Source: Agromyces albus
GTDB taxonomy: Bacteria > Actinomycetota > Actinomycetes > Actinomycetales > Microbacteriaceae
Length of the DNA stretch: 64,000 bases
NCBI RefSeq assembly: GCF_030815405.1
Contig: NZ_JAUSWX010000001.1
Span: forward strand, 2,976,001 to 3,040,000
Reading direction: 5' to 3'
This document shows, piece by piece, positions 49,192-64,000 of the stretch. The position numbers and the translations under genes are program-made. Numbering within the stretch: the stretch's first letter is position 1; each line of letters starts with the position of its first letter. Below the pieces are notes generated by a model that saw only the letters and a list, made by a program, of their open reading frames with translations, had not been told where the DNA came from and made no database searches.

Positions 49192-49635
49192 GTGCTGATC
49201 CGCCTCGCCGACGCCACCGACTCCGCCGCGATCGCCTCGCTTCTCGGGGAGCTCGGCTATCCGACCACTCCGTCTGCCGTCGCGGCTCGCTTCGTGCGCG
49301 TTGCGAGCAGCGCACAGGATGCCGCGTGGCTCGCACTCGACGACGACGGCGAGCCGATCGGGTTCGCGGCCGGCCACCACACGTGGGTCTACGTACTCGA
49401 CGCCCCGGTCGCCGAACTCACCTCCCTCGTCGTGACGGAGGCGAGTCGTGGCACCGGCGCGGGCCGAGCCCTCGTGGACGCGTTCGAGGCATGGTGCGCG
49501 GCCGCAGGATGCGTGCGGGCGAGCGTCGCGTCATCGTTCCGGCGGGTCGACGCACACGCCTTCTATGAGCGCCTCGGGTACGAGCAACTGGCGAAGAAGT
49601 TCGAGAAGGCCTTCGCGAACGTCATCGACGTGTGA
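49192..49635 (+). CDS. GNAT-family N-acetyltransferase
   Basis: 147-residue acetyl-CoA-dependent acetyltransferase. The acetyl-CoA binding motif is ASRGTGAGRALVDAFEAW (about residues 83-100), and HAFYERLGYEQLAKKFEK ends the fold. The substrate amine is unknown. GTG 49192 has TACGAT 6 bases upstream (leaderless type). Its 3' end overlaps the convergent GH32 gene by 14 bases. Confidence 0.88.
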   Translation: MLIRLADATDSAAIASLLGELGYPTTPSAVAARFVRVASSAQDAAWLALDDDGEPIGFAAGHHTWVYVLDAPVAELTSLVVTEASRGTGAGRALVDAFEAWCAAAGCVRASVASSFRRVDAHAFYERLGYEQLAKKFEKAFANVIDV

Positions 49636-50866
49636 GCTCATGGCTCGCGAGGCGTCCTCGATCGCTCTCGACGACGAAGTGATCGCCTGCCGGTGCGATC
49701 GCCGCTCCGAGCACGCCGGTCGGCGAGCACACCGCCAGCACGGGCCCATCGAGCACGACCCGGATGTCGCCGCCGGCGGGCATCGACCACTCCTGACCGC
49801 CCACGTGAACCGCGAGTTCGCCGCCGGACACCCGGAGCGATGCGACCGCGTCGCCCCCCGCTGAGATACGCAGCTCGTCAGAGTCGGCGGGCGACCAATT
49901 CAGGTCGCCGGCGAGGCCCGGCAATCTGCCGCCGTCGCTGACGCCCGCGCGATACGAATCGAGGTCGGGATGCGGCGTGGCGACCAGGGTGTCGCCGTCG
50001 AGCGTGAGTACGTGCGGGATGCTATGCGCACTCGCCCACCCGGCCTCCAGGTCGGCGATTCCCCGCATCCAGAAGGTGAGGCACGGCCGGCCCTCGGCAT
50101 CGCGGAAGAACGACGGGGCGTAGTAGCTCGGTCCGTAGGTGAGCCGCCCCCATGACTCGGCGGTGAAGACGCCGTCGGCATACCGGCCGACCGCGTACCC
50201 CGCGTAATGCAGTACGTCGTCGTCCCAGACGGATGACACCATCACATGACGGCCGTCGACCTCGATGATCTGCGGGCACTCCCACAGCGCGCCCATCCAC
50301 ACCGGGTCGACCTCGTGCGTCGATCGCTGCAGCGCGATGCCCTCGTACTCCCACTCGTCGAGGTCCGCCGACCGGTAGGACAATGCGGTGGCCGTGCCGT
50401 CCCTGAGTCCGGCGCCGAGGAACATCCGCCAGCCGTCGGACTCCTTGACGACGAACGGGTCTCGATAGGCGATGATGTCGAGCTCGGCGGGCGCTTCGGC
50501 GACGACTGCGCCTTTCGACCAGGCGATCCAGTCGTCGCCGTCCGGGGTCGCGACGCGAATCCGACCGATGCCGATATCGGGCTGCGTGGTCGCGGTGTAG
50601 AAGATGCGGGTTCGGTCGGCATCGTCGGTCACGAGCGATCCGGTCCAGATGCCGTCGTCACCCTCGCCCGGCGCGATCGCGATCGGCAGTTCCGAGAGCG
50701 AGAAGAGGTCGGCGCCCTTCGCGTGACCCCAGTGGCAGTTCGGCGCCCAGACGGTGCTCTCCGGCACGTACTGGAAGAACGCGTGGTACTCCCCGTCACG
50801 CGCGGTGATGCCGTGCGGGTCGTTGATCCATCCGCGCTCGGCCGTGAAGTGGAATGAGGGTCGCAT
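49622..50866 (-). CDS. GH32 beta-fructosidase (levanase/inulinase/sucrase type)
   Basis: 414-residue glycoside hydrolase family 32 enzyme; no signal peptide, so presumably cytosolic. The five-bladed propeller has the nucleophile motif WINDPHG (Asp at residue 16), the RDP transition-state motif in AYRDPFVV (about residue 135) and the acid/base Glu in LWECPQI (about 195). The short C-terminal beta-sandwich follows. All three catalytic acids are present, unlike in the other two GH32 proteins of the locus. It starts 2 bases after the GH172 stop and is co-transcribed with it. Confidence 0.92.
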   Translation of the reverse strand: MRPSFHFTAERGWINDPHGITARDGEYHAFFQYVPESTVWAPNCHWGHAKGADLFSLSELPIAIAPGEGDDGIWTGSLVTDDADRTRIFYTATTQPDIGIGRIRVATPDGDDWIAWSKGAVVAEAPAELDIIAYRDPFVVKESDGWRMFLGAGLRDGTATALSYRSADLDEWEYEGIALQRSTHEVDPVWMGALWECPQIIEVDGRHVMVSSVWDDDVLHYAGYAVGRYADGVFTAESWGRLTYGPSYYAPSFFRDAEGRPCLTFWMRGIADLEAGWASAHSIPHVLTLDGDTLVATPHPDLDSYRAGVSDGGRLPGLAGDLNWSPADSDELRISAGGDAVASLRVSGGELAVHVGGQEWSMPAGGDIRVVLDGPVLAVCSPTGVLGAAIAPAGDHFVVESDRGRLASHELTRR

Positions 50867-50868
50867 GG

Positions 50869-52224
50869 TCACTCTCCCGTCGCATCGAAGCGGGCGCGCA
50901 CGTCGCGCGCGATGTCGGCGTTGCCCTGCTCCCACTCGTCGATCTGGGACCGACGCTCTGCGCGCATCCGGTCGCGGCGCTCGGTGAACGTGCGCATGCG
51001 CTCGTCCGCGGCATCCCGGGCGGCGCGCTGCTCGTCAGTGAGCTCGGGCAGCGCGACCTCGATCACCCGGTCGACGGGGCGCAGGGGCAGCCGCTGATCG
51101 ACCGGAGGGATCTCGAGCACCGGCGAGGGCAACGTCTGGTACCAGTACGCCGTCGACGACCATTCGTCGCTGAGATGGTTGCCGTGGCCGTGCTCGAAGG
51201 TGACCTTGATCCGCTTCTCGAAGCGGATCGGGTCGGCCATGTGGAACCGGTAGCTGTGGTGGAATCCGGGAACGTTCTCCTCGTGCACGATCGTGCCGTT
51301 GAAGAGGTAGGCGTTGTGCTGCATGCCCCATGCGTGCCCGAAGTAGTCCTCCATGCCGGTGCCGTGGAGGCTCGGCGGCCAGGTGTCGTCGTCGATGAAG
51401 ATCATGTCGTCGCCCTCGCCCCACCAGGAACCCTGGAAGTGGCGAACAGCCAGCGTGCACCCGACGTAGTGCCCGCGCCCCTCTGTCTCGAGGGCCACGT
51501 AGTTGTCGGCGCCGTCGAGGTTCGCGACCGTCGTCTCGATGCTGTTCGACTGGAGATCGGGGCCCCATCCGGCGTTCGGCAGTGCGCGCCGCCAGTGCGC
51601 ATGGAAGTACACGGTCTCTTCGGGCAACGGCTCCTTGACGAGCTCGTAGTCGATGTAGAAGTACTGCAGGTACGGGATGTCGTTCTGGTTCTCCACCACG
51701 ATGCGGGCACGCGTGCCGAACGGCATCCGGAAGTAGCTGTTGAAGGCGGCGCTGCCGCCGAAGGAGTGCAGCTCCGCCTCCTTGGCCGAGACCGACAGCG
51801 GCAGTGAGTCGAAGGAACCCGACAGGGAGTTCATGAGCCCGAAGAAGTCACCCAGGGGAGCGACCACGCTCGGCGTCTCCTGGTCGTCCCAGTACATCTT
51901 GAGCACCACCTTGCGGTAGTAGTCGGGGTCGACGACCTCCCAGCTCACCCCGAGGGCATTGTGGATCTCGAGCATCGGCACGCCCACGACGCTCGGATCG
52001 ATCTGACCCGGGCCCGGCTGGATGCGGCACGACTGGGTCATCCAGATGTGCGTGATGAATCCCGGCCCTTCGATGTCGGCGAGCGTGCGCTCCTCACCGG
52101 GCATGATGATCCAGTTGTCGCGATTGCGGCCCGTCTGATCGAAGCTCGATGCGCGGGCTGTGCGAGCGCTGCGCGCCCGGGTGAGATCGCCGAGCATTCC
52201 GCCCGGACGCGTGGAATCGGTCAC
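50869..52224 (-). CDS. GH172 (DUF2961) family glycoside hydrolase
   Basis: 451-residue DUF2961 protein, now glycoside hydrolase family 172. Known members are difructose dianhydride I synthase/hydrolase-type alpha-fructofuranosidases and exo-alpha-D-arabinofuranosidases. Landmarks are GPGFITHIWMT (about 53-63), QGSWWGEGDDMIFIDDDTWP (about 259-278, with acidic residues near the catalytic pair) and LHGTGMEDYFGHAWG. The last 60 residues are a helical Arg/Glu tail. No signal peptide is seen. GTG 52224 has AAAGGA seven bases upstream. Its promoter at 52301-52329 has a LacI operator just downstream of the start point. Confidence 0.88.
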   Translation of the reverse strand: MTDSTRPGGMLGDLTRARSARTARASSFDQTGRNRDNWIIMPGEERTLADIEGPGFITHIWMTQSCRIQPGPGQIDPSVVGVPMLEIHNALGVSWEVVDPDYYRKVVLKMYWDDQETPSVVAPLGDFFGLMNSLSGSFDSLPLSVSAKEAELHSFGGSAAFNSYFRMPFGTRARIVVENQNDIPYLQYFYIDYELVKEPLPEETVYFHAHWRRALPNAGWGPDLQSNSIETTVANLDGADNYVALETEGRGHYVGCTLAVRHFQGSWWGEGDDMIFIDDDTWPPSLHGTGMEDYFGHAWGMQHNAYLFNGTIVHEENVPGFHHSYRFHMADPIRFEKRIKVTFEHGHGNHLSDEWSSTAYWYQTLPSPVLEIPPVDQRLPLRPVDRVIEVALPELTDEQRAARDAADERMRTFTERRDRMRAERRSQIDEWEQGNADIARDVRARFDATGE

Positions 52225-52278
52225 CGTCGTCCTTTCCTTCTCCGCCGCTGCGATGCGACGGGATGGCGAAAATGCCAT

Positions 52279-52291
52279 CGAAACGTTTGCG
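52279..52291. promoter_or_regulatory. LacI operator O1 (CGAAACGTTTGCG)
   Basis: AAACGTTT core at 52281-52288, ten to fifteen bases downstream of the GH172 -10 box. The same 13-base sequence occurs in inverse at 53515-53527. Confidence 0.8.
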
Positions 52292-52300
52292 TGTCCGATC

Positions 52301-52329
52301 ACGCTATCGGTCCAGCGCTGCCAGCGCAA
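52301..52329 (-). promoter_or_regulatory. Promoter of the GH172-GH32 operon
   Basis: On the minus strand -35 TTGCGC (52329-52324) and -10 TAGCGT (52306-52301), 17 bases apart. The -35 overlaps operator O2. Confidence 0.55.
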
Positions 52330-52344
52330 ACGCGTCGCGTTTGC
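52326..52344. promoter_or_regulatory. LacI operator O2, 19-base perfect palindrome
   Basis: GCAAACGCG-T-CGCGTTTGC is a perfect 9-base inverted repeat with a one-base centre. It resembles the other LacI sites but with an odd centre. It overlaps the GH172 -35 and lies about 93 bases before the regulator start. Confidence 0.7.
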
Positions 52345-52436
52345 ACCGGTTTTCGGTGTATTTCCACGCGAACAGCCGCGTGGTGTAGATTTGCGCAACG
52401 GCTGTGACAACACAGCTCAGGAGTCGGGAGTTGTCG

Positions 52437-53462
52437 ATGGCGACGATGGTGGATGTGGCGCGGATCGCCCGAGTGTCGATCTCGACGGTGTCGCACGTGC
52501 TGAACGGCACGCGGAACGTCGAGCCGGCGACACGCGATCGCGTCGTGGCGGCGATCGAGGCGACGGGATATCGACAGGACACCCTGGCCCGGGCGATGCG
52601 CCGCTCACGCACCGACAGCATCGGGCTCGTCGTCTCGGATGCCGGGGAGCCCGCGTTCGCCGAGATGGTGCACGGTGTCGAGGATGCCGCTGCCGAGCGG
52701 GGGCTCACCCTGCTCCTCGCGAACTCCTCAGAAGACGCCGAGCGGGAGAATCGCGCCGTGCGGACGCTCCTCGATCGCCGCGTCGACGGGCTCATCCTGG
52801 CCCGTGCCGCGAACTCGAGCGCCGGCCTCATGGAGGCCCTCCAGAGCGAGAAGCACCCGATCATCCTGCTCGACCGCCTCTTCGGCGAGCTCCCCTTCGA
52901 CCAGGTCGGCGCCGACAACCGCGATTCCATGCGCCGACTCGTCGGCCATCTGGTTGCGGCCGGTCATCGGCGCTTCGCCGTGATCGCCGGTGACACCCGC
53001 GTGCCGGCCCTCATGGAGCGTCTCGACGGATTCCACGACGGCCTCCGCAGCGGCGAGCTGCACCTCGACGACCAGCTCATCCACGAGGGTGTCGACACGC
53101 CTGCGCTCGAGTCGGCACTCGCAGGCGGGCTCGAGGACACCGCGATCACCGCCGTGATCGCCTGCAGCACGCCGCTCGCCACGGCCGCCCTTCGTGCCAT
53201 CGAGCGCGCAGGGCGATCGACGCCCGACGACACGGCATTCGCGACCTTCGACGGGTTCAATCACCCCGACCTGTTCCGCCCGCGCATCACGACGGTGCGC
53301 CAGCCCGCCTTCGACATGGGAGCGGCGGCGGTGCGGCTGCTCGTCGAACGCCTCGAGTCGCCCGAATCGAGCCCGCGCAGCGTGCGCCTGCACCAGCGCC
53401 TCGAGTTGCGTGACTCGACCGAGGGATACCGGTCCGGCTCATCGCAGCCCGAGCGCTCCTGA
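52437..53462 (+). CDS. LacI-family transcriptional regulator
   Basis: 341-residue repressor. The N-terminal helix-turn-helix has TMVDVARIARVSISTVSHVLNG followed by the hinge-helix ALARAMRRSRT. The rest is a periplasmic-binding-protein-like sensor domain in two lobes. ATG 52437 was chosen because GGGAG lies six bases upstream; a GTG at 52404 is less likely. It is placed between the divergent GH172 operon and the importer operon, both with AAACGTTT operators at their promoters, so it is the likely repressor of both, released by a fructose-derived sugar. Confidence 0.93.
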   Translation: MATMVDVARIARVSISTVSHVLNGTRNVEPATRDRVVAAIEATGYRQDTLARAMRRSRTDSIGLVVSDAGEPAFAEMVHGVEDAAAERGLTLLLANSSEDAERENRAVRTLLDRRVDGLILARAANSSAGLMEALQSEKHPIILLDRLFGELPFDQVGADNRDSMRRLVGHLVAAGHRRFAVIAGDTRVPALMERLDGFHDGLRSGELHLDDQLIHEGVDTPALESALAGGLEDTAITAVIACSTPLATAALRAIERAGRSTPDDTAFATFDGFNHPDLFRPRITTVRQPAFDMGAAAVRLLVERLESPESSPRSVRLHQRLELRDSTEGYRSGSSQPERS

Positions 53463-53470
53463 ATCCGGGC

Positions 53471-53499
53471 TTGACAGTCGTGGCCACCCGATCTAAGTT
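53471..53499 (+). promoter_or_regulatory. Promoter of the importer operon
   Basis: TTGACA (53471-53476), 17-base spacer, TAAGTT (53494-53499). It is the best sigma-70-type match in the window. Two LacI operators lie directly downstream. Confidence 0.75.
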
Positions 53500-53502
53500 C
53501 AG

Positions 53503-53527
53503 ACAAACGTTTCTCGCAAACGTTTCG
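53503..53527 (+). promoter_or_regulatory. Two adjacent LacI operators
   Basis: AAACGTTT cores at 53505-53512 and 53518-53525, 13 bases centre to centre. They lie just past the -10, so bound repressor would block initiation or early elongation. Confidence 0.8.
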
Positions 53528-53632
53528 ATGTAGTATCCGAATCTGCCGCCGAAGGCCGAACTCGAAAGCCCCGGTGGCCACGACGTATCGGCCGACGCAG
53601 CACGCCGGCCGCCACCATCAAAGGAGATGAAC

Positions 53633-54946
53633 GTGCCCCTGTCACCCCATCGTCATCCGCTTCGCCGGATCGCGGTCGGCACCATCGCGACCGCCGCCGC
53701 CATCCTGGCGCTCGCCGGATGCAGCGCTGCCGGTGCATCCGGCGACGGCAAGACCGAGATCACCCTCTCGATGCAGAACCCGGATGTGGAGTCCGCCGAT
53801 CCCGCCACCTGGGCGATCGTCGAGGCGTTCGAAGAGGCCAACCCCGACATCACCGTCACGGTGAGTGGCGAGGCGGTGTCGGAGCACCTGCAGAAGCTCT
53901 CGATCGCTGCGCAGAGCGACACGCTGCCCGACATCTTCTGGGTGTACAAGTCGACGGCCGAAGACATGCAGGAGGCCGGCAAGCTCCTCGACCTCGCCCC
54001 GGTGCTCGACGAGCTCGGACTCACCGATGCGTTCCCCGAGAGCACGGTCGCGAACTTCTCCAACGGCGACGTCATCTACGGCGTCCCGTATCAGGGACTC
54101 CTGACCGGCCTCTGGTACAACTCGAAGATCCTGAGCGACAACGGGCTCGAGGTGCCGGTCACCTTCGACGACCTGCTCCACGTCGCCGAGACGCTCAGCG
54201 TCAAGGGCATCACGACGATCTCGAACGGGGCGAACCAGTCGTCGTTCAGCGTGTGGAGCTTCCTTGTCGACCTCGATCGCTTCGGCTACGAGGAGAAGAT
54301 CGATGGGATCCTCGACGGCTCGGTGAAGTACGACAACCCCGACTTCCTCCGCCTCTACGAGCACATCGCCGAACTCCGCGACGCGGGCGCCTTCGCCTCG
54401 AACGTCTCCACCCAGACCTATCAGCAGGCGGTCGACCAGTTCACGAGCGGCAACGCCGCGATGCTCGACGCCGGCGTCTGGGCATCCAGCGCCATCCAGG
54501 ACTCGGCGATCGCGCCCGACGCCGGATTCTGGACCGGCCCGCAGTTCGATGACGGGGTCGGCGAGCAGAACATCGTCATGAACGTGGCATCCGCCCCGTT
54601 CGCGGTGAGTGCGAAGGTGGCCGGAGACGAACAGAAGCTCGAGGCCGTGAAGAAGTTCCTCGACTTCTACTACGGCGACGAAGCCCAGCAGATCCTCGTC
54701 GACAACGGACAGCCGCCGGTGACGACGTATGAGCCCGTCGTCGACGCTCAGGCGCAGAGCGCCCTCAAGGCGGCGCTCGACGCATCCACCGCCGACGGGG
54801 TGACCAGCCCGCAGTCGCAGCCCGACCTGCTCGTGTCGACTCCGGTCGCGAATGCGATGTACGACAGCATCTACGGCGTGATCCAGAACCAGCTCACGCC
54901 CAAGCAGGCCCTCGAACTGGTGCAGAAGGCGCTCGACGCCGAGTAG
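53633..54946 (+). CDS. ABC importer substrate-binding lipoprotein (carbohydrate, family 1)
   Basis: 437-residue sugar-binding protein anchored to the outer face of the membrane. Lipobox LAGC follows a short hydrophobic stretch near residues 13-25. The mature part shows the family 1 pattern, with QNPDVESADPATWAIVEAFEE, PVTFDDLLHVAETLSVKGI and YYGDEAQQILVDNGQPPVT. GTG 53633 was chosen over ATG 53627 because AAAGGAG abuts the ATG but lies six bases before the GTG. First gene of the importer operon. A stem-loop follows the stop. Confidence 0.92.
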   Translation: MPLSPHRHPLRRIAVGTIATAAAILALAGCSAAGASGDGKTEITLSMQNPDVESADPATWAIVEAFEEANPDITVTVSGEAVSEHLQKLSIAAQSDTLPDIFWVYKSTAEDMQEAGKLLDLAPVLDELGLTDAFPESTVANFSNGDVIYGVPYQGLLTGLWYNSKILSDNGLEVPVTFDDLLHVAETLSVKGITTISNGANQSSFSVWSFLVDLDRFGYEEKIDGILDGSVKYDNPDFLRLYEHIAELRDAGAFASNVSTQTYQQAVDQFTSGNAAMLDAGVWASSAIQDSAIAPDAGFWTGPQFDDGVGEQNIVMNVASAPFAVSAKVAGDEQKLEAVKKFLDFYYGDEAQQILVDNGQPPVTTYEPVVDAQAQSALKAALDASTADGVTSPQSQPDLLVSTPVANAMYDSIYGVIQNQLTPKQALELVQKALDAE

Positions 54947-54952
54947 TGGACG

Positions 54953-54989
54953 AACGGGGCCGGCCGGCCGCCCTGCGGTCGGCCCCGTT
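54953..54989 (+). other. Intercistronic stem-loop after the binding-protein gene
   Basis: AACGGGGCCG pairs perfectly with CGGCCCCGTT (54980-54989) around a 17-base loop. Such structures between a binding-protein gene and its permeases often stabilise the upstream mRNA and lower permease expression. Confidence 0.65.
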
Positions 54990-55042
54990 CCGTTCCAACC
55001 AGGGAACCACGGTGGTTCTCGATGAACAGGAGAGTTGCATCC

Positions 55043-55915
55043 ATGATCTGGGTGAGTTCCCGCTGGAAGATCCTCCTCATGGTGGCGCCGGCGTTGATCG
55101 TCTTCACAGGCTTCGTCATCTACCCGGTGGTGTACTCGCTGGGCTTCAGCTTCACGAAGTTCCAGGGCTTCGGGGCGCCCGAGTGGATCGGCTTCGACAA
55201 CTACGCCGCGCTCGCGGTCGACCCGTTCTTCTGGCAGGCGCTGCAGAACACGATCGTGATCCTGGTCGTGAGCCTCGCGATCCTCATCCCCGCGTCGTTC
55301 GGGCTCGCGCTGCTGCTGCGGCGCCGCATCGCCGGCGGCGGCACGCTTCGGGCGCTCGTGTTCGGGCCGGCGATCATCGCGCCGATCCTCGTCGGCCTCA
55401 TCTGGGTCTTCATCCTCGACCCGAAGATCGGCCTGCTGAATCGAGTGCTCGGCTTCTTCGGCGCTGCGCCGGTGCAATGGATCGGCGGCGATACGCTGAC
55501 GCCCTACGCGGTGTCGCTCGTCTTCATCTGGAGCAGCATCGGCTTCGCGATGACGATCTTCTACGCGGGGCTGCAGCTCCTGCCGTCGGATGTCATGGAG
55601 GCCAGCGCCATCGACGGGGCGACCGGATGGCAGCAGCTCCGTCACATCACGGTGCCCATGATGCGCGAGACCTTCGCCATCGTCACCATCCTCATGATCA
55701 CCAACGTGTTCAAGATCTTCGAGCTCGTCTTCATGCTCACCGGCGGTGGGCCGGTGCACCGCTCCGAGACGCTCGTGAGCTACATGTACTTCGTCACCTT
55801 CACCAACCAGCAATACGGCTACGGCATGGCCCTCGCCGTCATCATCACCGTTCTCGGCGCGGTCGTCTCGGCCGGCTACCTCGTCGTCTCCCGTGGAAGG
55901 AAGCAGCCGGCATGA
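55043..55915 (+). CDS. ABC importer permease (MalF-like)
   Basis: 290-residue six-helix permease. The conserved EAA loop that contacts the ATPase is EASAIDGATGWQQLRHITVP (residues about 190-210). The sequence FSFTKFQGFGAPEWIGFDNY is typical of the MalF/UgpA group. ATG 55043 has AGGAG ten bases upstream; the ATG at 55022 has none. The stop overlaps the next permease by 4 bases. No ATPase gene is in the operon. Confidence 0.9.
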   Translation: MIWVSSRWKILLMVAPALIVFTGFVIYPVVYSLGFSFTKFQGFGAPEWIGFDNYAALAVDPFFWQALQNTIVILVVSLAILIPASFGLALLLRRRIAGGGTLRALVFGPAIIAPILVGLIWVFILDPKIGLLNRVLGFFGAAPVQWIGGDTLTPYAVSLVFIWSSIGFAMTIFYAGLQLLPSDVMEASAIDGATGWQQLRHITVPMMRETFAIVTILMITNVFKIFELVFMLTGGGPVHRSETLVSYMYFVTFTNQQYGYGMALAVIITVLGAVVSAGYLVVSRGRKQPA

Positions 55916-56826
55916 GCGCACAACTGATGGACACGGGGCTCGAGCCGATCTCGGAGATCGCCCTCGCCGGGGCGCCCGCGCAGCTGCCTCGGCGTCGTCG
56001 CGGGCGCACGGCCGCGATCGTCGTGGGCGTGGCCGCCTACCTCGTGACGTTCCTCATCGTGCTGCCGATCCTCTGGATCGTGCTGCTGTCGTTCCAGCCC
56101 AGCGGCAACATCCTCTCCAACCCGTTCTCGTTCGACCACCTGACGTTCGACAACTACGTGCGGGCGATCACGTCGCTTCCGCTCCTCCAGATGTACGGCA
56201 ACACGATCCTGATCGCGGTCGTCTCGGTCACGGTCGGCACGGCGATCTCGTTCATGGCCGCCTTCGCCCTGACGCGGATGATCTTCCGGCGCCGTCGTAC
56301 GCAGTCGGCGCTCCGGTTCTACCTGCTCGCAGGCCTCGCCGTGCCCGTGTACATCCTGCTCTTCCCCGTGTATCGCCTCGACCTCGCGCTCGGCATCTTC
56401 GGCACCTACGCGGCGCTGATCCTGCCCTACGTCGCGGTCTCGATCCCGTTCAACACGCTCCTGCTCACCGGCTTCCTCCGCGAGTTCCCCGGCGAGATCG
56501 AGGAGGCGGCGATCATCGACGGCGCCGGGCTCTGGCGGTTGTGCACGTCGGTCGTGCTGCCGCTCATGCGACCCGTGATCGCGACGATCCTCATCTTCAA
56601 CGTCGTCTACGTCTTCAACGAGTTCCCGTTCGCGTCGATCCTCATCAACGACCCCAGCATGGTCACCGTCTCCCTCGCGGTGTCGCGATTCCAGGGCCAG
56701 TACACCGTCGACTACGGCGGGATGATGGCGTCGGCGACGCTCGTGCTCCTGCCGCAGCTCGTCATCTACGCGATCTTCCAGCGCCACGTGATCGCCGGCA
56801 TGACGGTCGGTGCAGTGAAGGGGTGA
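55912..56826 (+). CDS. ABC importer permease (MalG-like)
   Basis: 304-residue six-helix permease with the EAA loop EEAAIIDGAGLWRLCTSVVL (about 197-216) and the opening YLVTFLIVLPILWIVLLSFQ. The first 35 residues are a soluble tail. ATGA overlap (55912-55915) couples it to the MalF-like gene. It ends 4 bases before the convergent stop of the GH32-like gene. Confidence 0.92.
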   Translation: MSAQLMDTGLEPISEIALAGAPAQLPRRRRGRTAAIVVGVAAYLVTFLIVLPILWIVLLSFQPSGNILSNPFSFDHLTFDNYVRAITSLPLLQMYGNTILIAVVSVTVGTAISFMAAFALTRMIFRRRRTQSALRFYLLAGLAVPVYILLFPVYRLDLALGIFGTYAALILPYVAVSIPFNTLLLTGFLREFPGEIEEAAIIDGAGLWRLCTSVVLPLMRPVIATILIFNVVYVFNEFPFASILINDPSMVTVSLAVSRFQGQYTVDYGGMMASATLVLLPQLVIYAIFQRHVIAGMTVGAVKG

Positions 56827-56830: not shown

Positions 56831-57835
56831 CTACGCCGAGCGCGCAGCGCTCAGTGCGGGCTCGACGAGTCGGCTCCAACCGCCCCCGCGTTCGATCGAG
56901 AGCCGGCCTGCGGGGTCGACGGCGATCGGGAACGGGTCGCTGAGACCGCCGATGAATGGCCCGTCGTCGACGAACTGGAGGAACGCGAGGAAGACGTGCT
57001 CGCCCTCGAACGTGCGCACCACTCGTCCCGCGTAGAGCTCCCCGCGCGGGTCACCGCTGAAGAAGTCGCGTGACTCGAGCGTGAACGGCCCGGACGCCGT
57101 GTCGCCCACGAGGTAATGGGTGCCGCACAGCGCGACGCCGTCGGAGATGCGTGCTGCGCTGTGCGCCCATTCGTAGGCCGAGAAGAACAGGTACCACCGG
57201 TCGCCGATGCGTTCGAGCTGCGGCACCTCCATGTGACCGAACTCCCCCGGCGTTGCGACGGGCGGCAACACCTCCCAGTCGTCGAGGGTGCGCGAGCGGG
57301 CGAGGCCGATCGCACCACGCGAGTCCACCGCGCCGTCGCGCACTCTCGCGGTGATGAGCATGCGGTACTCGCCCGTCGCCTCGTCGAAGTACACCCACGG
57401 GTCGCGCCAGGTGAGGTCGAACCACACGTCGAGATCGAGTTCCTCGTACCAGCGCGGATCCACTTCGAGCACGAAGGCGTCCTTGGTCCAGTGGTGCAAG
57501 TCGGTGCTCGTCGCGCGTCCGATTCGCTGCACGAGTCCGTCCTCGGCGCGATTCACGCCGGTGTAGTACATCTGCCAACCACCGGCGACGCGGATGACGC
57601 TGCCGGTCCAGGTCGCGAGGTCGTCCCATTCCCCCGGCGCACCGGGACCGAGCGCCTCGCCGATGAACTCCCAGTCGCGCAGGTCGGTTGAGACCGCGTG
57701 GCCGATCCGTGCGTTCTGGTGTCGGAGCTCTGGGTCGCCGAGCGAGATCGGCGCCATGAGGAAGTAGAGGTGGTAGCGCTCGCCGGCCTCCATGAGCCAG
57801 AAGTCCCAGGTCCAGTGGTCGGGGAGGATGAGCAT
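56831..57835 (-). CDS. Divergent GH32-like glycosidase (334 aa)
   Basis: 334-residue beta-propeller glycosidase of the GH32/GH43/GH68 clan. It starts MLILPDHWTWDFWLMEAGER, where the usual WMNDP is WTWDFW, keeping an Asp. The RDP motif is in WRDPWVYFDE, and the acid/base Glu region is FGHMEVPQLERIG. No beta-sandwich domain follows, so it is shorter than a typical GH32 enzyme. It has no signal peptide. ATG 57835 comes 1 base after the stop of the LamG/GH32 gene. The activity is probably on a fructose-containing substrate, by context. Confidence 0.82.
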   Translation of the reverse strand: MLILPDHWTWDFWLMEAGERYHLYFLMAPISLGDPELRHQNARIGHAVSTDLRDWEFIGEALGPGAPGEWDDLATWTGSVIRVAGGWQMYYTGVNRAEDGLVQRIGRATSTDLHHWTKDAFVLEVDPRWYEELDLDVWFDLTWRDPWVYFDEATGEYRMLITARVRDGAVDSRGAIGLARSRTLDDWEVLPPVATPGEFGHMEVPQLERIGDRWYLFFSAYEWAHSAARISDGVALCGTHYLVGDTASGPFTLESRDFFSGDPRGELYAGRVVRTFEGEHVFLAFLQFVDDGPFIGGLSDPFPIAVDPAGRLSIERGGGWSRLVEPALSAARSA

Positions 57836-57836: not shown

Positions 57837-60023
57837 TCAGTCGGCCTTTCGTGGTCGGTATGCGGGGTGGAGTTCGTAGGCGGAGCAGGAGATGAGCCGG
57901 GCGCCGCGGGCAAGTCGCAGTCGCAGGTCGCGAGCGTCGGCGCTCACCGGGTAGGCGCGCGAGGTCAGTGACACCCGGTCGTCGACGTACAGCTCGACCA
58001 TCGAGCCGTCGACGAGCAGGCGGGCGTGCACCGTCGGCGATGCAGGGTGACGGATGCTGCGCCGCCCTTCGGTGTGTTCCGGTCGAAGGCTGCTCCGCGA
58101 CCGGTCGATCCAGACCTCGGTGCCCGAGACCCCGAGCAGCGTCGTCTCGGATCCATCGGCGCTGCGCAGCACCTCGATCTCGAAGCCCGCGCCGTCGACC
58201 TCGAGTTCGAGCTCGAAGTGCCGGCCGTGAAGGAGAGCGGATGCGTCATCCGCTCGCTTCCGGGCATCGATGATCGATCGATCGAGGGCGATCGGGCGCT
58301 CGCGCAGCAGGCGGAGCTCGGCGACGGGTCGCACGGCGAGCGTGCCGTCGTCGTGCAGGCCGAGTTCGAGCGGGAAGCCCGCGTTGTGCGCCCAGCCGGT
58401 CGCGGCGAACTCGGCGAGGCTACGTGTGTCCTGCGCGATGGTCCAGAGGATCGAACGCCCGTCGTCGAGTACCGTGCCGCTCGGGCCCGTGAGATGGCCG
58501 CCGCCGTCGAACTCCCGCGGGTCGGGGTCGTCGGGCGTGAAGCGCCTGGCGGCGGCATCCCAGACCCCGATCCAGTGCCAGACGTGCTGGAGGTGGTGCT
58601 CGCTGTCGCCCGCCCACCACGGCGCCACGAAGAGGGCGTGCCGAAGCGTGCCGTCGGCGCCGTTCCCCACGGGCAGCAGCACGGGAAGCTCCCACATCAC
58701 GCCCGTCGCCGGGAACCCGTCGACATCGCCGACGAGCAGCGGTTCCTGCTGCTCCCAGTGGTCGCCGTCACGCGAGTGGAAGAGCAAGGCCGCCCCGCCG
58801 CGGCCCTCAAGGCCCGCGCCGACGAGGAGGAACCAGTCGTCGCCCTCGCGCCACACGAACGGATCGCGGAACTGGCCGGTGACGAGCGCCTCGTCGTGGC
58901 CCGGCACCGACGCGGGCATCTCGAGCACTGGGTTCTCGTCGACGACCCAGCCGACGCCATCGGGGCGCGCGACCACGACCGACTGGTCGGGACGCCGCCC
59001 GAAGTCACCCGCCGTGAAGTACAGCAGATGCTCGCCCCCGGGCGCGACGACCGAGCTGCCGCTCCAGATGCCGTCGGGCGCGACGGTCTCGGCCGCCGGT
59101 GCGATCGCGATGGCCGAATCCTCCCAGTGCACGAGATCGCGGCTCACCGCGTGGCCCCAGGCGATGTGCCCCCAGTACGGCCCGCCGGGGTTGTGCTGGG
59201 AGAAGAGGTGGTGCACGCCGTCCGCGTGCAGCGCGGCGTGCGGTTCGTTCATCCAGCCCTGCGGCGCCGAGACGTGGGCGATCGGGCGGTGCGGGTCGCT
59301 CGCATAACGGGCGCGATCGGGTGCGGTGTCGGCCGCGGCATCCGCGATGGCGCCTGCAGCATTGGTCACGGATGCCGCGGATGCCGCGGCCGGCCGGATC
59401 CGCATCGGCCCGAGCAGGCCGATCGCCGCAGCGAGCGGGAACAGGCCTTCGAGCAGCTCACCGTCACGCAAGCGGCCAAGGAGGATCCGGGCGGGAAGAC
59501 GGATGTCGCCCGCCGGCACCTCGAAGGCACCGACAGGTTCGCCGCCGAGGCGGAGCTCAGCGCGACCATTGCTGATGGACAACGCGAGATAGTTCCACGC
59601 GTCGAGCGCGAGCCGTCGGGAACCGGCGAGCACGCGCCCATCGACCAGGGCCGCGATGCGACCTGCTCGATCGTGGCCGAGCGCGAAGCCGGCGTGCCGC
59701 TGCGGCACCGACTCCGACTCCGGCTCCGAGGCATCGACGATCGCGGTGAAACCCCGAGCACCGCCCGGCGCGAAGGCGCGGGGCGCGAACCACGCCTCGA
59801 CCGTTACGACAGCTTCGGTGGAGGGCGCGCGGTGAAGCTCCACCGCACTCGACCAGCCGTCGAGGAACATCGCCCAGCTGTCGGCGACGGGCCCGCTCCG
59901 GGGATCGAGCAGCGTTGCGCGCTGCGCCGCCGACGCCGAGCAGAGCATGACGGCATCGGAGCCGGCGCGATCGACGGCGCGCACGGGGTTCCCCTCGAAC
60001 ACGACGTCGATGAGGGGTGTCAT
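57837..60023 (-). CDS. LamG-like/GH32 protein with WMNEP motif
   Basis: 728-residue two-part protein. Residues 1-210 form a LamG/CBM66-like sandwich (VVTVEAWFAPRAFAPGGARG, RRLALDAWNYLALSISNGRA). From about 235 a GH32 catalytic domain follows with GWMNEPHAALHADGVHHLFS, where the nucleophile position is Glu (E260) instead of Asp, HNPGGPYWGHIAWGHAVSRD, FRDPFVW and the Glu in MWELPVLL. A C-terminal beta-sandwich ends it. ATG 60023 was chosen because GGAGG lies seven bases upstream; ATG 60083, overlapping the binding-protein stop, is possible. No signal peptide. Confidence 0.88.
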   Translation of the reverse strand: MTPLIDVVFEGNPVRAVDRAGSDAVMLCSASAAQRATLLDPRSGPVADSWAMFLDGWSSAVELHRAPSTEAVVTVEAWFAPRAFAPGGARGFTAIVDASEPESESVPQRHAGFALGHDRAGRIAALVDGRVLAGSRRLALDAWNYLALSISNGRAELRLGGEPVGAFEVPAGDIRLPARILLGRLRDGELLEGLFPLAAAIGLLGPMRIRPAAASAASVTNAAGAIADAAADTAPDRARYASDPHRPIAHVSAPQGWMNEPHAALHADGVHHLFSQHNPGGPYWGHIAWGHAVSRDLVHWEDSAIAIAPAAETVAPDGIWSGSSVVAPGGEHLLYFTAGDFGRRPDQSVVVARPDGVGWVVDENPVLEMPASVPGHDEALVTGQFRDPFVWREGDDWFLLVGAGLEGRGGAALLFHSRDGDHWEQQEPLLVGDVDGFPATGVMWELPVLLPVGNGADGTLRHALFVAPWWAGDSEHHLQHVWHWIGVWDAAARRFTPDDPDPREFDGGGHLTGPSGTVLDDGRSILWTIAQDTRSLAEFAATGWAHNAGFPLELGLHDDGTLAVRPVAELRLLRERPIALDRSIIDARKRADDASALLHGRHFELELEVDGAGFEIEVLRSADGSETTLLGVSGTEVWIDRSRSSLRPEHTEGRRSIRHPASPTVHARLLVDGSMVELYVDDRVSLTSRAYPVSADARDLRLRLARGARLISCSAYELHPAYRPRKAD

Positions 60024-60071: not shown

Positions 60072-60079
60072 TGCTCCGC

Positions 60080-61711
60080 TCATGTCGCGTCGACGAACCG
60101 GTCGTACCCGGCCTGGTAGATCTCGACGAGACGATCGAGGCCCATGGACTCGAGCTGTGAGACATAGCCGTCCCAGGCTTCCTCGACCCCGCCCGAGCTG
60201 ATCCACTCCGCTCGCTTCTGTTCGACGAGCGCCGTGATGTCAGGCTCGATCGAACCGATCTCCTCGAGTTCCTCCACGGAGAAGAACACCGAGGGATAGT
60301 TCTCGGGTTCCGCGTAGGGGAGGTAGTGCTCCTCGAGATCCTGCAGGCGCTTCAGGGCTCGCGGTTCAGGAAGGACGACGTTCTCGAAGTCCTCGCGAGT
60401 GAGCACGTGCGGAGCTCCTGAGCCGAGTGCGACCTGCTGGCGCAGCTCGCCGGCGTTGACACCCGCGGGAAGCGGCGCCTGCTCGAGTACCTCATCGGCG
60501 TTCTCCACGAGGGTCTCGCCGATCGGCCCATAGGAGACCTGCGCCGCCAGGGTCGGCTCGTAGAGCCGATCGATGTAACGCATCGTGGCCGACGGATACT
60601 TGTTGGCGCTCGTGATGGCGAACGCGTTCCGGCCGAAATCGGCGAGGTTGGATCGACCGACGAGCTTGCCCTCGACGCCCTCGAGCACGGGCAGCAGGGC
60701 GTAGTCGTCGGCACGGTCGGTGCCGACGACCTCCTCGGTCTCCCACCAGACATACGAGCCGAGCACGGGCGTCTCGGTCTTGCCCTTCGCGAGATACGTC
60801 TTGTCGTCTTGCGTGAAGGACTCAGGATCGATGAGCCCCTCCTCGTACCACTCGTGCAGCGTCGCGATCGCGTCGCGGTAGCGCTCATCCGCACCCGTGT
60901 AGATCACTTCGCCGTCGCGGACGATGCGGTGGTCGGCGTTGTCGGCGATGCCGCCGAGCGCGGCGAAGAGGTCCGCGATGTCGGCGCACCACCAGTCGTT
61001 GATGAAGCTCAGCGGGATCTCGTCGGCCTTGCCGTTCCCGTTCGGGTCCTGTGTCTTGAAGGCCACGAGGGCGTCGTGGTACTCGTCGACGGTCGTGGGC
61101 ATCGGCAGGCCGAGCGCGTCGAGCCACGATGTGTTGATCGACCAGAAGAAGGGCACGGCGGCCAGTCCGAGCTCCTCGGCGTTCGGGAGCGCGTAGATGT
61201 GACCGTCAGAGGCGGTCACCGCCGCCTCCAGCTCGGGCCGCTCCTCGAACACGGCCTGCAGGTTGGGCGCGTACTTCTCGATGAGTCCCTCGAGCGGGAT
61301 GAGGGTGCCGTTCGTGCCGTAGCGCACGAGCTCCTCATCGGTGAACCTGGAGTTGATGAACGCGTCGGGCAGGTCGTTCGAGGCGAGCAGGAGGTTGCGC
61401 TTCTGGGAGTAGACCTCGGGAGCGAGCAGGTTCCACTCGACCTCGATGTTGGTGTCCTCCTGCCACTGCTGCACGAGCGCCAACTCGTTGTAGTCGGGCG
61501 TGAGGGAGGCCTTCTCCCCTGCGATCGACAGGGTGAGCGGCTTGTCCACGATGGGAAGGCCGGTCTCATTGAAGCCGAACGCGCTCGACTCGTCGTCGAG
61601 TGCGGCATCCGGAGTGCTGCCGCAGCCGCTCAGTACCAGAGACAGGATCGCGGATGCCGCGACGGCGGCTCCGAGGCGGGCGTTGCCGCCGCGGGTGTTG
61701 CGTGGTCTCAC
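60080..61711 (-). CDS. ABC importer substrate-binding lipoprotein (LplA-like)
   Basis: 543-residue binding protein, larger than MalE and similar in size to LplA/YtcQ proteins, which bind oligosaccharides. The lipobox LSGC (Cys near residue 30) follows the signal peptide. Typical parts are NIEVEWNLLAPEVYSQKRNL, DLPDAFINSR, TYLAKGKTETPVLGSYVWWE and the C-terminal WDGYVSQLESMGLDRLVEIY. GTG 61711 has AAAGGA six bases upstream. It lies after the two permeases in the same operon. Confidence 0.92.
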   Translation of the reverse strand: MRPRNTRGGNARLGAAVAASAILSLVLSGCGSTPDAALDDESSAFGFNETGLPIVDKPLTLSIAGEKASLTPDYNELALVQQWQEDTNIEVEWNLLAPEVYSQKRNLLLASNDLPDAFINSRFTDEELVRYGTNGTLIPLEGLIEKYAPNLQAVFEERPELEAAVTASDGHIYALPNAEELGLAAVPFFWSINTSWLDALGLPMPTTVDEYHDALVAFKTQDPNGNGKADEIPLSFINDWWCADIADLFAALGGIADNADHRIVRDGEVIYTGADERYRDAIATLHEWYEEGLIDPESFTQDDKTYLAKGKTETPVLGSYVWWETEEVVGTDRADDYALLPVLEGVEGKLVGRSNLADFGRNAFAITSANKYPSATMRYIDRLYEPTLAAQVSYGPIGETLVENADEVLEQAPLPAGVNAGELRQQVALGSGAPHVLTREDFENVVLPEPRALKRLQDLEEHYLPYAEPENYPSVFFSVEELEEIGSIEPDITALVEQKRAEWISSGGVEEAWDGYVSQLESMGLDRLVEIYQAGYDRFVDAT

Positions 61712-61785: not shown

Positions 61786-62721
61786 TCAGTTCTTGACGGC
61801 GCCGAGCAGCGCTCCCTGTGTGAAGAAGCGCTGCAGGAACGGGACCATGAGCAGCAGCGGGACGCTGGCGAACACGATGGCCGAGTACTTGAGGAGCTCG
61901 GCGAGGCGTTGCGCCGCCTCGTAGCTGGCGAGGTCGCCGCTCAGGTTCGAACTGCCCGAGAGGTCGGACTGCACGAGGATGTTGCGGAGCACGAGCTGGA
62001 GCGGGTACAGGTCGGGGTTGTTGAGGTAGATCAGGGCGTCGAAGAAGCCGTTCCAGTTCCAGATCAGGTGGATGACGATCATGAGCGCGATGAGCGGCTT
62101 GGAGAGCGGCACCGCGATGCGGAAGAAGAACCGGAAGTCGCTCGCCCCGTCCATCTGTGCTGCCTCCCGGATCTCGTCGGGCAGGCTCGATTCGAAGAAC
62201 GCCCGCGCGATGACGACGTTCCAGACGGCGACGGCACCCGGGAGGATCATGGCGCCGACGGTGTCGAGGAGGCCGAGGTCACCCACGACGAGGTATCTCG
62301 GGATGATGCCGCCGTCGAAGAAGAGCGTGACGACGAGGAGGAAGGTGATCGTCTTCCGCCCCGGCAGGTCCCGACGCGAGAGCACGTAGCCGGCCGAGAC
62401 CACGAGCGCGACGCTCAGTGCCGTCGCCAGCCCCGTGTAGAGCAGCGAGTTGCCGAGTCCGCGCCACACCGTGGCATCCGTCAGCAGGCGGGCATAGCCG
62501 TCGAGCGTGAAGCCCACCGGCCAGAACCACACCTGCCCCTCGTAGACCCGGGCGGGCTCGCTCACCGACGCGATCACGATGAAGTAGATCGGGTAGATCA
62601 CGGCGATGAGGGCGAAGCCGAGGATCGTCATCGCGAACGCGTTGAAGAGCGGATCGGCGAGGCGCCGCCGGAATGCCGTGCCGCGCGGGGTGACGGGCGG
62701 ACGCATGAGCTGGGTCGTCAT
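61786..62721 (-). CDS. ABC importer permease (LplC/YtcP-like)
   Basis: 311-residue permease with about six helices and the EAA loop REAAQMDGASDFRFFFRIAVP (roughly residues 200-220). The first 25 residues are soluble. Characteristic LplC wording includes NWNGFFDALIYLNNPDLYPL and LVLRNILVQ. AGGAG lies six bases before ATG 62721, 8 bases after the preceding permease stop. It belongs to the second importer. Confidence 0.92.
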   Translation of the reverse strand: MTTQLMRPPVTPRGTAFRRRLADPLFNAFAMTILGFALIAVIYPIYFIVIASVSEPARVYEGQVWFWPVGFTLDGYARLLTDATVWRGLGNSLLYTGLATALSVALVVSAGYVLSRRDLPGRKTITFLLVVTLFFDGGIIPRYLVVGDLGLLDTVGAMILPGAVAVWNVVIARAFFESSLPDEIREAAQMDGASDFRFFFRIAVPLSKPLIALMIVIHLIWNWNGFFDALIYLNNPDLYPLQLVLRNILVQSDLSGSSNLSGDLASYEAAQRLAELLKYSAIVFASVPLLLMVPFLQRFFTQGALLGAVKN

Positions 62722-62729
62722 CGGAACTC

Positions 62730-63737
62730 CTACCAGAGGCTGGATTGACGGGCCCGACGTGCGACCTGGTTGAAGGTCAGCAGGAGGGCGAGATTGAGAA
62801 CGGAGTTGAACAGGCCGATGGCGGAGGCGTAACTGAACTGCGCCTGCTGAAGGCCGACCTCGTAGGTGTAGGTCTGGATGACCTGCGACGCGGCGACATT
62901 GAGATCGGTCTGCATGAGCAGCGCCTTCTCGAAGCCGAGGTTCAGCAGGTTGCCGACGGCGAGGATGAAGAGCACCGAGATGACCGGTGCGATACCCGGC
63001 AGGTCGATGTGCCAGACCCTGCGCAGCTTGCTCGCGCCGTCGACCTTCGCCGCATCGTGCAGCGCGGGATCGATGCCCGCAAGGGCGGCGAGGTAGACGA
63101 CCATGTTGAAGCCCGCCTCCTGCCACACCGAGCTCGCGACGTAGACGGGCCGGAACCACTCGGCCGAGCCCATGAAGAAAATCGGTTCGCCGCCGAACAG
63201 CCCGATTGCGTTGTTGATCAGACCGGCTCTCGGCGACAGCAGGATGAAGAGGATGCCGACGACGACGACCGTCGAGATGAACGTCGGCGCGTAGAGCACG
63301 TTCTGCACGAAGCGGCGGAACCTGCCCTGTGCGAGTTGATTCACGAGCAGCGCGAGGAGGATCGGGATCGGGAACACGAACGCGAGGTTCATGATCGCGA
63401 GCAACAACGTGTTCGAGACGACCGTGCCGAACTGGTACGACGAGAAGAACCGCACGAAGTGGTCGACGCCGGCCCATGGGCTCTCGGTGAAGCCGCCCGC
63501 CGGCGTGTAGTCGCGGAAGGCGATCTGGACGCCGTACATCGGCCAGTACTTGAAGACCAGGAAGTAGACCAGTGTCGGAGCTAGTAGTACGTATAACTGC
63601 CACGCGCGGAGCACACGGATCGTGCGCGATTTCCGCCGAGCCGGCGCGGATCGACGCTGCTGCGGGTCGGATGACGACCCCTGATGCGGCGAGTCCGCGG
63701 CCGTCACCGGCTGCGCCTGAACGACGGTGTCAGCCAC
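62730..63737 (-). CDS. ABC importer permease (LplB-like)
   Basis: 335-residue permease. A 45-residue basic N-terminal tail precedes the first helix (LYVLLAPTLVYFLVFKYWPM). MYGVQIAFRDYTPAGG and the EAA loop HDAAKVDGASKLRRVWHIDL are typical of LplB. GTG 63737 has AGGAG seven bases upstream and overlaps the end of the second LacI gene by 8 bases, so the regulator and importer are co-transcribed. Confidence 0.92.
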   Translation of the reverse strand: MADTVVQAQPVTAADSPHQGSSSDPQQRRSAPARRKSRTIRVLRAWQLYVLLAPTLVYFLVFKYWPMYGVQIAFRDYTPAGGFTESPWAGVDHFVRFFSSYQFGTVVSNTLLLAIMNLAFVFPIPILLALLVNQLAQGRFRRFVQNVLYAPTFISTVVVVGILFILLSPRAGLINNAIGLFGGEPIFFMGSAEWFRPVYVASSVWQEAGFNMVVYLAALAGIDPALHDAAKVDGASKLRRVWHIDLPGIAPVISVLFILAVGNLLNLGFEKALLMQTDLNVAASQVIQTYTYEVGLQQAQFSYASAIGLFNSVLNLALLLTFNQVARRARQSSLW

Positions 63738-64000
63738 GGTGCGCTCCTCTCGGTGCGGCGACTGAGTCGCGCGTGATGATCGGGCACCCGATGCGCTCGG
63801 GGCCGTCGGCCTGCACGACGTCGTCGAGCAGGATGTCGACGGCGCGGCGACCCATCGCGACGAACGGCAGCTCGAGGGTGGTGAGTGCGGGACGAAGGAA
63901 CGGTGCGAGCGTCTCCTGGTTGTCGAAGCCCACGATCGAGACATCGTCGGGCACCCGCAGCCCGAGGGATTCGAGCGCCTGATAAGCGCCCCAGGCGGTT
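63730..64000 (-). CDS. LacI-family regulator, C-terminal end (cut by window edge)
   Basis: About 89 C-terminal residues of a LacI-type regulator: GAYQALESLGLRVPDDVSIV, GFDNQETLAPFLRPALTTLE and RRAVDILLDDVVQ, the standard end of the sensor domain. The frame is open through base 64000. It is the first visible gene of the LplBC-binding protein-GH32 operon and probably its repressor. It is not the same gene as the one at 52437, so each half of the locus has its own LacI protein. Confidence 0.92.
   Translation of the reverse strand, partial: TAWGAYQALESLGLRVPDDVSIVGFDNQETLAPFLRPALTTLELPFVAMGRRAVDILLDDVVQADGPERIGCPIITRDSVAAPRGAHRG

What the first reader, a model, noticed from the sequence alone, without database searches (positions are those of the whole stretch)
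49622..64000. Two-armed fructan or difructose-anhydride locus: one GH172, three different GH32-type enzymes, two importers, two LacI regulators
Seen: GH172 (DUF2961) and a canonical GH32 enzyme form one operon; a LacI gene and a MalFG-type importer face them; a second LacI, an LplABC-type importer, a LamG/GH32 protein with WMNEP and a short divergent GH32-like enzyme form a convergent operon. Known: GH172 contains difructose dianhydride I-active alpha-fructofuranosidases and D-arabinan-active members; GH32 cleaves beta-fructosides. Inference: the two arms divide substrate classes, one for oligosaccharides with an alpha-fructosyl or anhydride link and one for beta-fructans. I know of no described system with this exact composition.
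Basis: partly seen in the sequence, partly recalled or inferred. Interest (0 to 1): 0.8.

Follow-up and report, generated by a model that had tools for sequence, protein, structure and literature searches.

The report
Difructose-anhydride (cyclic fructose dimer) utilisation island
This actinobacterium carries side-by-side gene sets that look built to take up and open cyclic two-fructose sugars (difructose anhydrides I and III); the single enzymes are known from elsewhere, but we found no description of the combined, separately switched set.

Summary
Arm A (49622-56826) is a six-gene module: GH32, GH172, LacI, a binding protein and two permeases. Its GH172 is 53% identical to the solved difructose dianhydride I (DFA I) synthase/hydrolase and keeps all eight residues mutated there, including the +1 residues needed for inulobiose. 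The putative operator AAACGTTT occurs three times in the 64-kb window, each time in an arm A promoter gap, and in both gaps of 16 of 16 related modules that passed the layout filter. This supports the difructose-anhydride reading. The "two arms" idea is weaker: there are four modules, and the LamG-GH32, LplA and LplB of arm B were matched beside GH172 in none of 80 named loci; arm B's substrate is unknown. Arm A alone is not new: Bifidobacterium dentium has GH172+GH32+ABC. New is the combined DFA I plus DFA III island, in a genome where no fructotransferase-type GH91 was found. No activity was tested.

The parts
49622..50866 (-). Arm A: GH32 enzyme (WINDPHG, RDP, EC), 414 aa, two bases after GH172; likely splits inulobiose to fructose
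   Evidence: Pfam Glyco_hydro_32N 195 bits, no GH32C match; motifs
50869..52224 (-). Arm A: GH172, DFA I synthase/hydrolase type, 451 aa
   Evidence: 53% identity to 7V1V over 444 aligned positions; all eight mutated residues kept; tree
52281..52288 (.). Arm A putative operator AAACGTTT in front of the GH172 operon
   Evidence: one of three copies in the 64-kb window, 0.12 expected; present in this gap in 16 of 16 related modules
52437..53462 (+). Arm A: LacI-family regulator
   Evidence: Pfam LacI + Peripla_BP_3
53505..53525 (.). Arm A: two AAACGTTT copies (53505, 53518) in front of the importer genes
53627..54946 (+). Arm A: lipoprotein sugar-binding protein
   Evidence: SBP_bac_1 100 bits; lipobox
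55022..55915 (+). Arm A: MalF-type permease
   Evidence: BPD_transp_1
55912..56826 (+). Arm A: MalG-type permease
   Evidence: BPD_transp_1
56831..57835 (-). Arm B: short GH32-like enzyme, propeller only, WTWDFW / RDP / HMEVPQ
   Evidence: motifs conserved in homologues; AlphaFold model, mean pLDDT 93.6
57837..60023 (-). Arm B: LamG + GH32 enzyme with Glu at the nucleophile position (WMNEP)
   Evidence: GH32N 183 bits, GH32C 51 bits, Laminin_G_3 25.6 bits (below its cut-off 27.6); Glu in all aligned homologues
60080..61711 (-). Arm B: LplA-type lipoprotein binding protein
   Evidence: no Pfam hit at 1e-3; lipobox; place beside LplC/LplB
61786..62721 (-). Arm B: LplC-type permease
   Evidence: BPD_transp_1
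62730..63737 (-). Arm B: LplB-type permease
   Evidence: BPD_transp_1
63730..64000 (-). Arm B: LacI regulator, C-terminal part only in the window (gene runs to 64776). Modules C and D lie beyond the window end and are listed with continued coordinates in the full report
   Evidence: L004:1730-2776

Best explanation
Arm A is a DFA I (alpha-fructofuranoside) utilisation module. The binding protein and MalF/MalG permeases import DFA I (or related cyclic or alpha-linked fructose dimers), GH172 opens it to inulobiose by a retaining mechanism (Glu nucleophile and Glu acid/base), and the GH32 enzyme encoded two bases downstream splits inulobiose to two fructoses, which also pulls an equilibrium that by itself favours DFA I about 9:1. 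The LacI protein represses both divergent units through AAACGTTT. The module is one part of a larger island whose far module (D) does the same for DFA III with a GH91 hydrolase, so both cyclic dimers end in inulobiose. Shown here: gene identity, residues, conservation of the site, linkage. Inferred: substrates, direction of flux, repression, order of steps.
For: GH172: 536 bits to 7V1V against 193, 174 and 100 bits for 4KQ7, 8AH3 and the exo-alpha-D-arabinofuranosidase 8IC8, 53% identity to 7V1V. E85, K147, Y187, W267, E270, E291, D292, W298 all kept; mutants of E85 and K147 keep pNP-alpha-D-Araf activity but fall below 5% on inulobiose (PMC8605356 section 8). The tree puts it with 7V1V, and the genome's second DUF2961 protein with 8IC8. 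B. dentium has GH172+GH32+ABC. Six-gene order in 16 of 80 named loci; a GH32-type gene within 3 kb in 66 of 80 and two permeases within 6 kb in 72 of 80. Conserved site. GH91 DFA III hydrolase homologue in the same locus; a GH91 match within 10 kb of GH172 in 22 of 80 (one of them, L048, partial).
Against: No enzyme, binding or expression data. The characterised GH172 also cleaves alpha-D-arabinofuranosides (PMC8605356), so substrate is not fixed by family. GH172 and GH91 sit in separate modules with different sites, so joint function is not shown; in 15 of the 24 searched genomes that have both GH172 and a hydrolase-type GH91 I found no linkage within about 25 kb (from coordinates; contig identity checked for part of them). 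14 of 80 GH172 loci had no GH32-type match within 3 kb.
Confidence: 0.82

Rival explanations
1. The GH172 acts on alpha-D-arabinofuranosides (D-arabinan fragments of actinobacterial cell walls) and the fructan genes next to it are a coincidence.
For: The B. dentium enzyme has alpha-D-arabinofuranosidase activity too (PMC8605356 abstract); other GH172 proteins are linked to D-arabinan degradation (PMC10509167, start of abstract in a search listing only; 8IC8 by its PDB name).
Against: +1 residues E85/K147 are kept, which matter for inulobiose only; the tree separates it from 8IC8; a GH32-type gene lies within 3 kb in 66 of 80 loci.
Confidence: 0.07
2. Arm B is a separate importer-plus-hydrolase set for short beta-2,1 or beta-2,6 fructo-oligosaccharides: LplABC imports chains, LamG-GH32 (Glu nucleophile as in endo-inulinase INU2) cuts them and the short GH32 trims them. 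It only happens to lie beside arm A.
For: Glu at the nucleophile position in the query and the 119 homologues aligned (best 120 of 394 hits, one of them the query) and in INU2 (PMC5245892, PMC6042768 passages); another genome has LplABC-LacI-LamG-GH32 with no recognised DFA enzyme beside it; in eight cases a LamG-GH32 hit and a short-GH32 hit (55-81% identity) have a longest contig of the same length, so probably share it.
Against: No substrate known for any of these; G106, the related genome, has no short GH32 in the set; other homologues of the short GH32 (about 40-45% identity) sit next to DFA III hydrolase genes in 7 of 19 family genomes with that enzyme type, which hints at an inulobiose-type role.
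Confidence: 0.5
3. Arm B serves another cyclic or branched fructose dimer (for example DFA IV or diheterolevulosans), so that the whole island is for anhydrides.
For: Position between two anhydride modules; homologues of the short GH32 in DFA III modules.
Against: LamG-GH32, LplA and LplB of arm B matched in none of 80 named GH172 neighbourhoods; no anhydride-opening enzyme of its own recognised in arm B.
Confidence: 0.2

Closest known systems
Bifidobacterium dentium BBDE_2039-2043 (GH32, GH172 alphaFFase1, ABC transporter), PMC8605356
   Same: GH172 with a neighbouring GH32 and ABC importer; proposed route DFA I to inulobiose to fructose inside the cell
   Different: Here a divergent LacI with a conserved AAACGTTT site, and further fructose-sugar modules including a DFA III hydrolase homologue beside it
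Streptomyces davawensis DFA I route (GH91 BN159_0187, GH172 BN159_0193, GH32 BN159_0194), proposed in PMC8605356
   Same: GH172+GH32 in one neighbourhood with a GH91
   Different: There GH91 is an extracellular DFA I-producing inulin fructotransferase; here the only GH91 found in the genome is of the DFA III hydrolase type
Blautia DFA III gene clusters (GH91 DFA-IIIase, GH32, ABC), PMC11538131
   Same: Module D: GH91 hydrolase type with its own importer
   Different: With a LacI gene, no GH32 of its own in this genome, and placed in one island with a DFA I module
Arthrobacter DFA III hydrolases (5ZKS; PMC4640833)
   Same: 80% identity to 5ZKS, catalytic Asp/Glu pair kept
   Different: Only the genomic setting

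Membership tests
GH172, DFA I synthase/hydrolase type (alphaFFase1) | DUF2961 domain over the curated cut-off | tested here: met
   275.6 bits, cut-off 27
GH172, DFA I synthase/hydrolase type (alphaFFase1) | Catalytic Glu270 and Glu291 and -1 residues Tyr187, Trp267, Asp292, Trp298 | tested here: met
   all identical in the alignment; roles from PMC8605356
GH172, DFA I synthase/hydrolase type (alphaFFase1) | +1 residues Glu85 and Lys147 needed for inulobiose | tested here: met
   identical; the full set EKYWEEDW is in 78 of 102 rows. The genome's own second copy is gapped at both
GH172, DFA I synthase/hydrolase type (alphaFFase1) | Groups with the B. dentium enzyme rather than D-arabinan-active members | tested here: met
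   quick tree, SH-aLRT 85 and 89 at the forks that hold it with 7V1V; second copy with 8IC8 at 96. Only one D-arabinan enzyme (8IC8, 47% of columns) was in the tree, and several long branches make deep forks unsure
GH172, DFA I synthase/hydrolase type (alphaFFase1) | Interconverts DFA I and inulobiose | not testable with these tools
   needs enzyme assay
GH91, DFA III hydrolase subfamily (module D, outside window) | High identity to characterised DFA-IIIases, well below that to fructotransferases | tested here: met
   80% to 5ZKS; 798 bits against 366, 358, 279 for fructotransferases
GH91, DFA III hydrolase subfamily (module D, outside window) | Catalytic Asp/Glu pair (D207/E218 in A. aurescens numbering) | tested here: met
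   D199/E210, same spacing and aligned with 5ZKS; the transfer of the numbering is mine
GH91, DFA III hydrolase subfamily (module D, outside window) | Intracellular (no signal peptide) | tested here: inconclusive
   no lipobox by pattern and no hydrophobic start by eye; no signal predictor was run
Three-stage inulin-DFA pathway (secreted fructotransferase, import, hydrolase) | Own secreted DFA-forming inulin fructotransferase of GH91 | tested here: not met
   one GH91 match in the genome, of the hydrolase type (E up to 1e-3)
GH32 (LamG-GH32 of arm B) | Asp nucleophile in the WMNDPNG motif | tested here: not met
   Glu (WMNEPH) in the query and the 119 homologues aligned; Glu is also the nucleophile of endo-inulinase INU2, so this does not exclude GH32
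GH32 (short enzyme of arm B) | N-terminal propeller plus C-terminal beta-sandwich | tested here: not met
   GH32N 62.7 bits over cut-off but no GH32C; in the model the strands end soon after the propeller
LacI regulon of arm A | A shared palindromic site before both divergent units | tested here: met
   AAACGTTT in both gaps of the own module and of 16 of 16 related modules; 41 of 48 copies in 337.5 kb of those loci lie in 6.3 kb of gaps. Binding not shown

The most novel reading that the evidence does not exclude
The island is a dedicated anhydride-scavenging system: with no fructotransferase-type GH91 found in its genome, the bacterium would live on DFA I and DFA III released by the secreted fructotransferases of neighbouring bacteria (or by heating), using separate importers, regulators and openers for each cyclic dimer that converge on inulobiose. 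In Agromyces sp. Soil535 the same type of importer (88-95% identical) carries a divergent GH172 in place of GH91, suggesting modules that swap openers for different anhydrides.
Probability: 0.4. Interest if true: 0.55.

Novelty: new variant of a known kind. Interest (0 to 1): 0.42.

Why it matters
Difructose anhydrides are made by some bacteria from inulin and by caramelisation, and are of interest as prebiotics; who eats them and how is known for few organisms. The locus gives a defined, testable pair of DFA I and DFA III modules with predicted operators, and shows that the two known anhydride routes are physically joined in several lineages of Actinomycetota and in Hyphomicrobiales. It also names a candidate importer family for each sugar and flags a divergent GH172 group that travels with the DFA III-type importer and to which I could assign no function.

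Tried and rejected
D-arabinan reading of the GH172: set aside on residues and tree. Reading arm B as an integral part of the DFA I module: rejected, its LamG-GH32, LplA and LplB were matched beside GH172 in none of 80 named loci. Horizontal transfer by composition: GC of the four modules (0.67-0.69) is like the flanks (0.68-0.70), no tRNA gene found at 40000-64000 or in L004; but at the thresholds used GH172, GH91, short GH32 and LamG-GH32 were each found in only 1 of the 10 genus members sampled, the own genome, so the locus is accessory. The exact-palindrome scan of promoter gaps gave no site for arm A and only a GC palindrome for module D; the sites were then found by eye and tested by counting. 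AAACGTTT was picked after seeing the own sequence, so only the 16 related modules are an independent test. The paper search on inulin fructotransferase, gene cluster, LacI and ABC transporter gave nothing new on this system in the 20 of 383 papers listed.
Full report
What is there. The window lies at 2976001-3040000 of a 4.27-Mb single-contig genome. The genus is not told; by its nearest named relatives it is a Microbacteriaceae, perhaps Agromyces (GH172 92% in the best segment to Agromyces sp. Soil535 and to Naasia aerilata; paired with the former in the tree). Every gene in the finding is present at the stated coordinates. Arm A: GH172 and GH32 on the minus strand, two bases apart, facing a LacI gene and a binding protein with MalF/MalG permeases. 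Arm B: a convergent minus-strand set with LacI, LplB, LplC, LplA, LamG-GH32 and a short GH32-like enzyme. The LamG match is weak (25.6 bits, cut-off 27.6) and the LplA-type protein has no Pfam hit at 1e-3.

The genome beyond the window end continues the locus (coordinates continued past 64000). Module C: alpha/beta hydrolase 64890-65762, GH32 65849-67363, a fused double ATPase 67360-69132, permeases 69129-70088 and 70098-71075, family 5 binding protein 71184-72848, LacI 72907-73923. Module D: LacI 74056-75129, GH91 75191-76534, permeases 76617-77453 and 77450-78457, binding protein 78504-79829. The GH91 protein is 80% identical over 444 aligned positions to the DFA III hydrolase 5ZKS (798 bits) and much further from the fructotransferases (366, 358, 279 bits). 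It is the only GH91 found in the genome.

Identity of the GH172. Against solved structures it matches the B. dentium DFA I synthase/hydrolase 7V1V with 536 bits, and 4KQ7, 8AH3 and the exo-alpha-D-arabinofuranosidase 8IC8 with 193, 174 and 100 bits; identity to 7V1V is 53%. I mapped the eight residues that Kashima et al. mutated (PMC8605356; outline and abstract, passages, section 8 and part 1 of section 10 seen). All eight are identical, including Glu85 and Lys147, whose mutants fall below 5% on inulobiose but keep pNP-alpha-D-arabinofuranoside activity. In a quick tree of 102 rows (101 different) the window protein falls with 7V1V (forks of support 89 and 85) and the second copy beside 8IC8 (96); several long branches make the deeper forks unsure.

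Mechanism. In the published case DFA I and inulobiose are interconverted with an equilibrium of 9:1 towards DFA I (abstract), so net use of DFA I needs a step that removes inulobiose, most simply the GH32. A GH32-type match within 3 kb of GH172 is found in 66 of 80 named loci, two permease matches within 6 kb in 72 of 80, both in 64 of 80, and the exact six-gene arm A order in 16 of 80. The 80 are the best of 404 confirmed matches, and only my query proteins at E up to 1e-10 were used for recognition; some records end near the gene. 14 of 80 had no GH32-type match and 8 of 80 no pair of permeases by these limits.

Regulation. AAACGTTT occurs three times in the 64-kb window (0.12 expected from base composition), at 52281, 53505 and 53518, all in the two promoter gaps of arm A. 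In 16 of 16 related modules that passed the layout filter both gaps contain it; 41 of 48 copies in 337.5 kb of these loci lie in 6.3 kb of gap sequence. The modules are related, so the binomial value overstates the evidence. Module D has another site, GCCAAGACGATTTGGCAAAACGTCTTGGC, at 79883-79911; a strict related form was found in seven fetched stretches that make six distinct modules (M. saccharophilum counted once), and looser forms are seen in three more (L042, L045, L046). Arm B has a perfect 14-base palindrome GTTATACGTATAAC before its LacI; the one related genome, G106, has GTTAATCGTATAAC in both matching gaps. So the modules look separately switched; no binding was tested.

Comparative genomics. 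In 398 family genomes a match to this GH172 (E up to 1e-60) is found in 10, one of them (G084) only 45% identical; GH91 (1e-40) in 21; both in 5 where 0.5 are expected by chance (relatedness ignored, own genome included; without it 4 against 0.45). Near named GH172 genes a GH91 match lies within 10 kb in 22 of 80: 5 of hydrolase-like identity (63-76%) and 17 lower (37-47%, one partial), probably fructotransferases. I searched 37 of the 80 genomes for GH91 (E up to 1e-30): 31 have one, and 24 have the hydrolase-like type (62-83%). In 9 of these 24 it lies within about 25 kb of GH172 on the same contig: Microbacterium saccharophilum, M. mangrovi (which also has a second, fructotransferase-like GH91), a Propionibacteriaceae MAG, Arthrobacter nitrophenolicus, Cellulomonas sp. 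73-92, a Hyphomicrobiales MAG and three Sinorhizobium. Linkage of the two anhydride routes thus recurs, but most carriers of both (15 of 24) do not show it.

Arm B. The LamG-GH32 was matched in 2 of 398 family genomes (E up to 1e-60), the own one and G106; there it sits with LplABC, LacI and another GH32-type gene, without a recognised GH172, GH91 or short GH32 nearby. LamG-GH32, LplA and LplB of arm B were matched in none of the 80 named GH172 loci; short-GH32 homologues of 32-37% identity were in 3 of 80 (L048, L084, L116). LamG-GH32 has Glu where GH32 mostly has Asp as nucleophile, in the query and in the 119 homologues aligned (the best 120 of 394, one being the query); the endo-inulinase INU2 has the same (PMC5245892 and PMC6042768, passages). 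The short enzyme keeps the three catalytic positions in the query plus 120 best of 3238 hits (D in 118 of 121, two rows gapped; RDP 121 of 121; E 121 of 121), lacks a C-terminal domain match, and its model is a propeller with a short tail. Homologues at about 40-45% identity sit beside hydrolase-type GH91 in 7 of 19 family genomes with that type; I fetched the neighbourhood of 11 of the 19 and judged the others from coordinates. Its substrate stays open.

Literature. GH172 and GH91 occur together in three papers of the held library; none of the passages I saw describes a combined DFA I and DFA III locus. Searches used. Subscription journals are mostly not held, so absence in print is not shown. 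The Blautia paper (PMC11538131, passages) describes GH91+GH32+ABC clusters and refers to the GH172 work; PMC4640833 (passages) gives the catalytic pair of a DFA III hydrolase. That MalFG-type importers borrow a general ATPase is recalled, not tested.

Verdict. Observation confirmed. A new variant of a known kind, of moderate interest.

Noticed in passing
G000:C1:1221779-1222525 (L005:8780-9526): A second DUF2961 gene near a MalFG-type importer; it groups with the exo-alpha-D-arabinofuranosidase 8IC8 and is gapped at the +1 residues, so it may act on D-arabinan.
   Followed up: partly
L053:3091 and L168 (Agromyces sp. Soil535), L040:14057-15136, L089/L090: A divergent GH172 group (40-41% identity, Gly and Phe at two of the eight positions) encoded with a module D-type importer and, in Agromyces, directly beside an arm A module; no GH91 found in that genome. 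Function unknown.
   Followed up: partly
L004:2890-9075 (window coordinates 64890-71075): Module C: Opp-type importer with a fused double ATPase, an alpha/beta hydrolase and a GH32 enzyme; might handle an esterified sucrose-type sugar (speculation).
   Followed up: no
G000:C1:3886937-3893790 (L136, L137): Two more GH32 genes: one with a secretion-type start closest to exo-inulinase 8I12, one closest to endolevanase LevB1 and then levan fructotransferase.
   Followed up: partly
L038/L039 and L093 (Naasia aerilata): GH172 and the adjacent GH32 are each split between frames; could be sequencing errors or decay.
   Followed up: no
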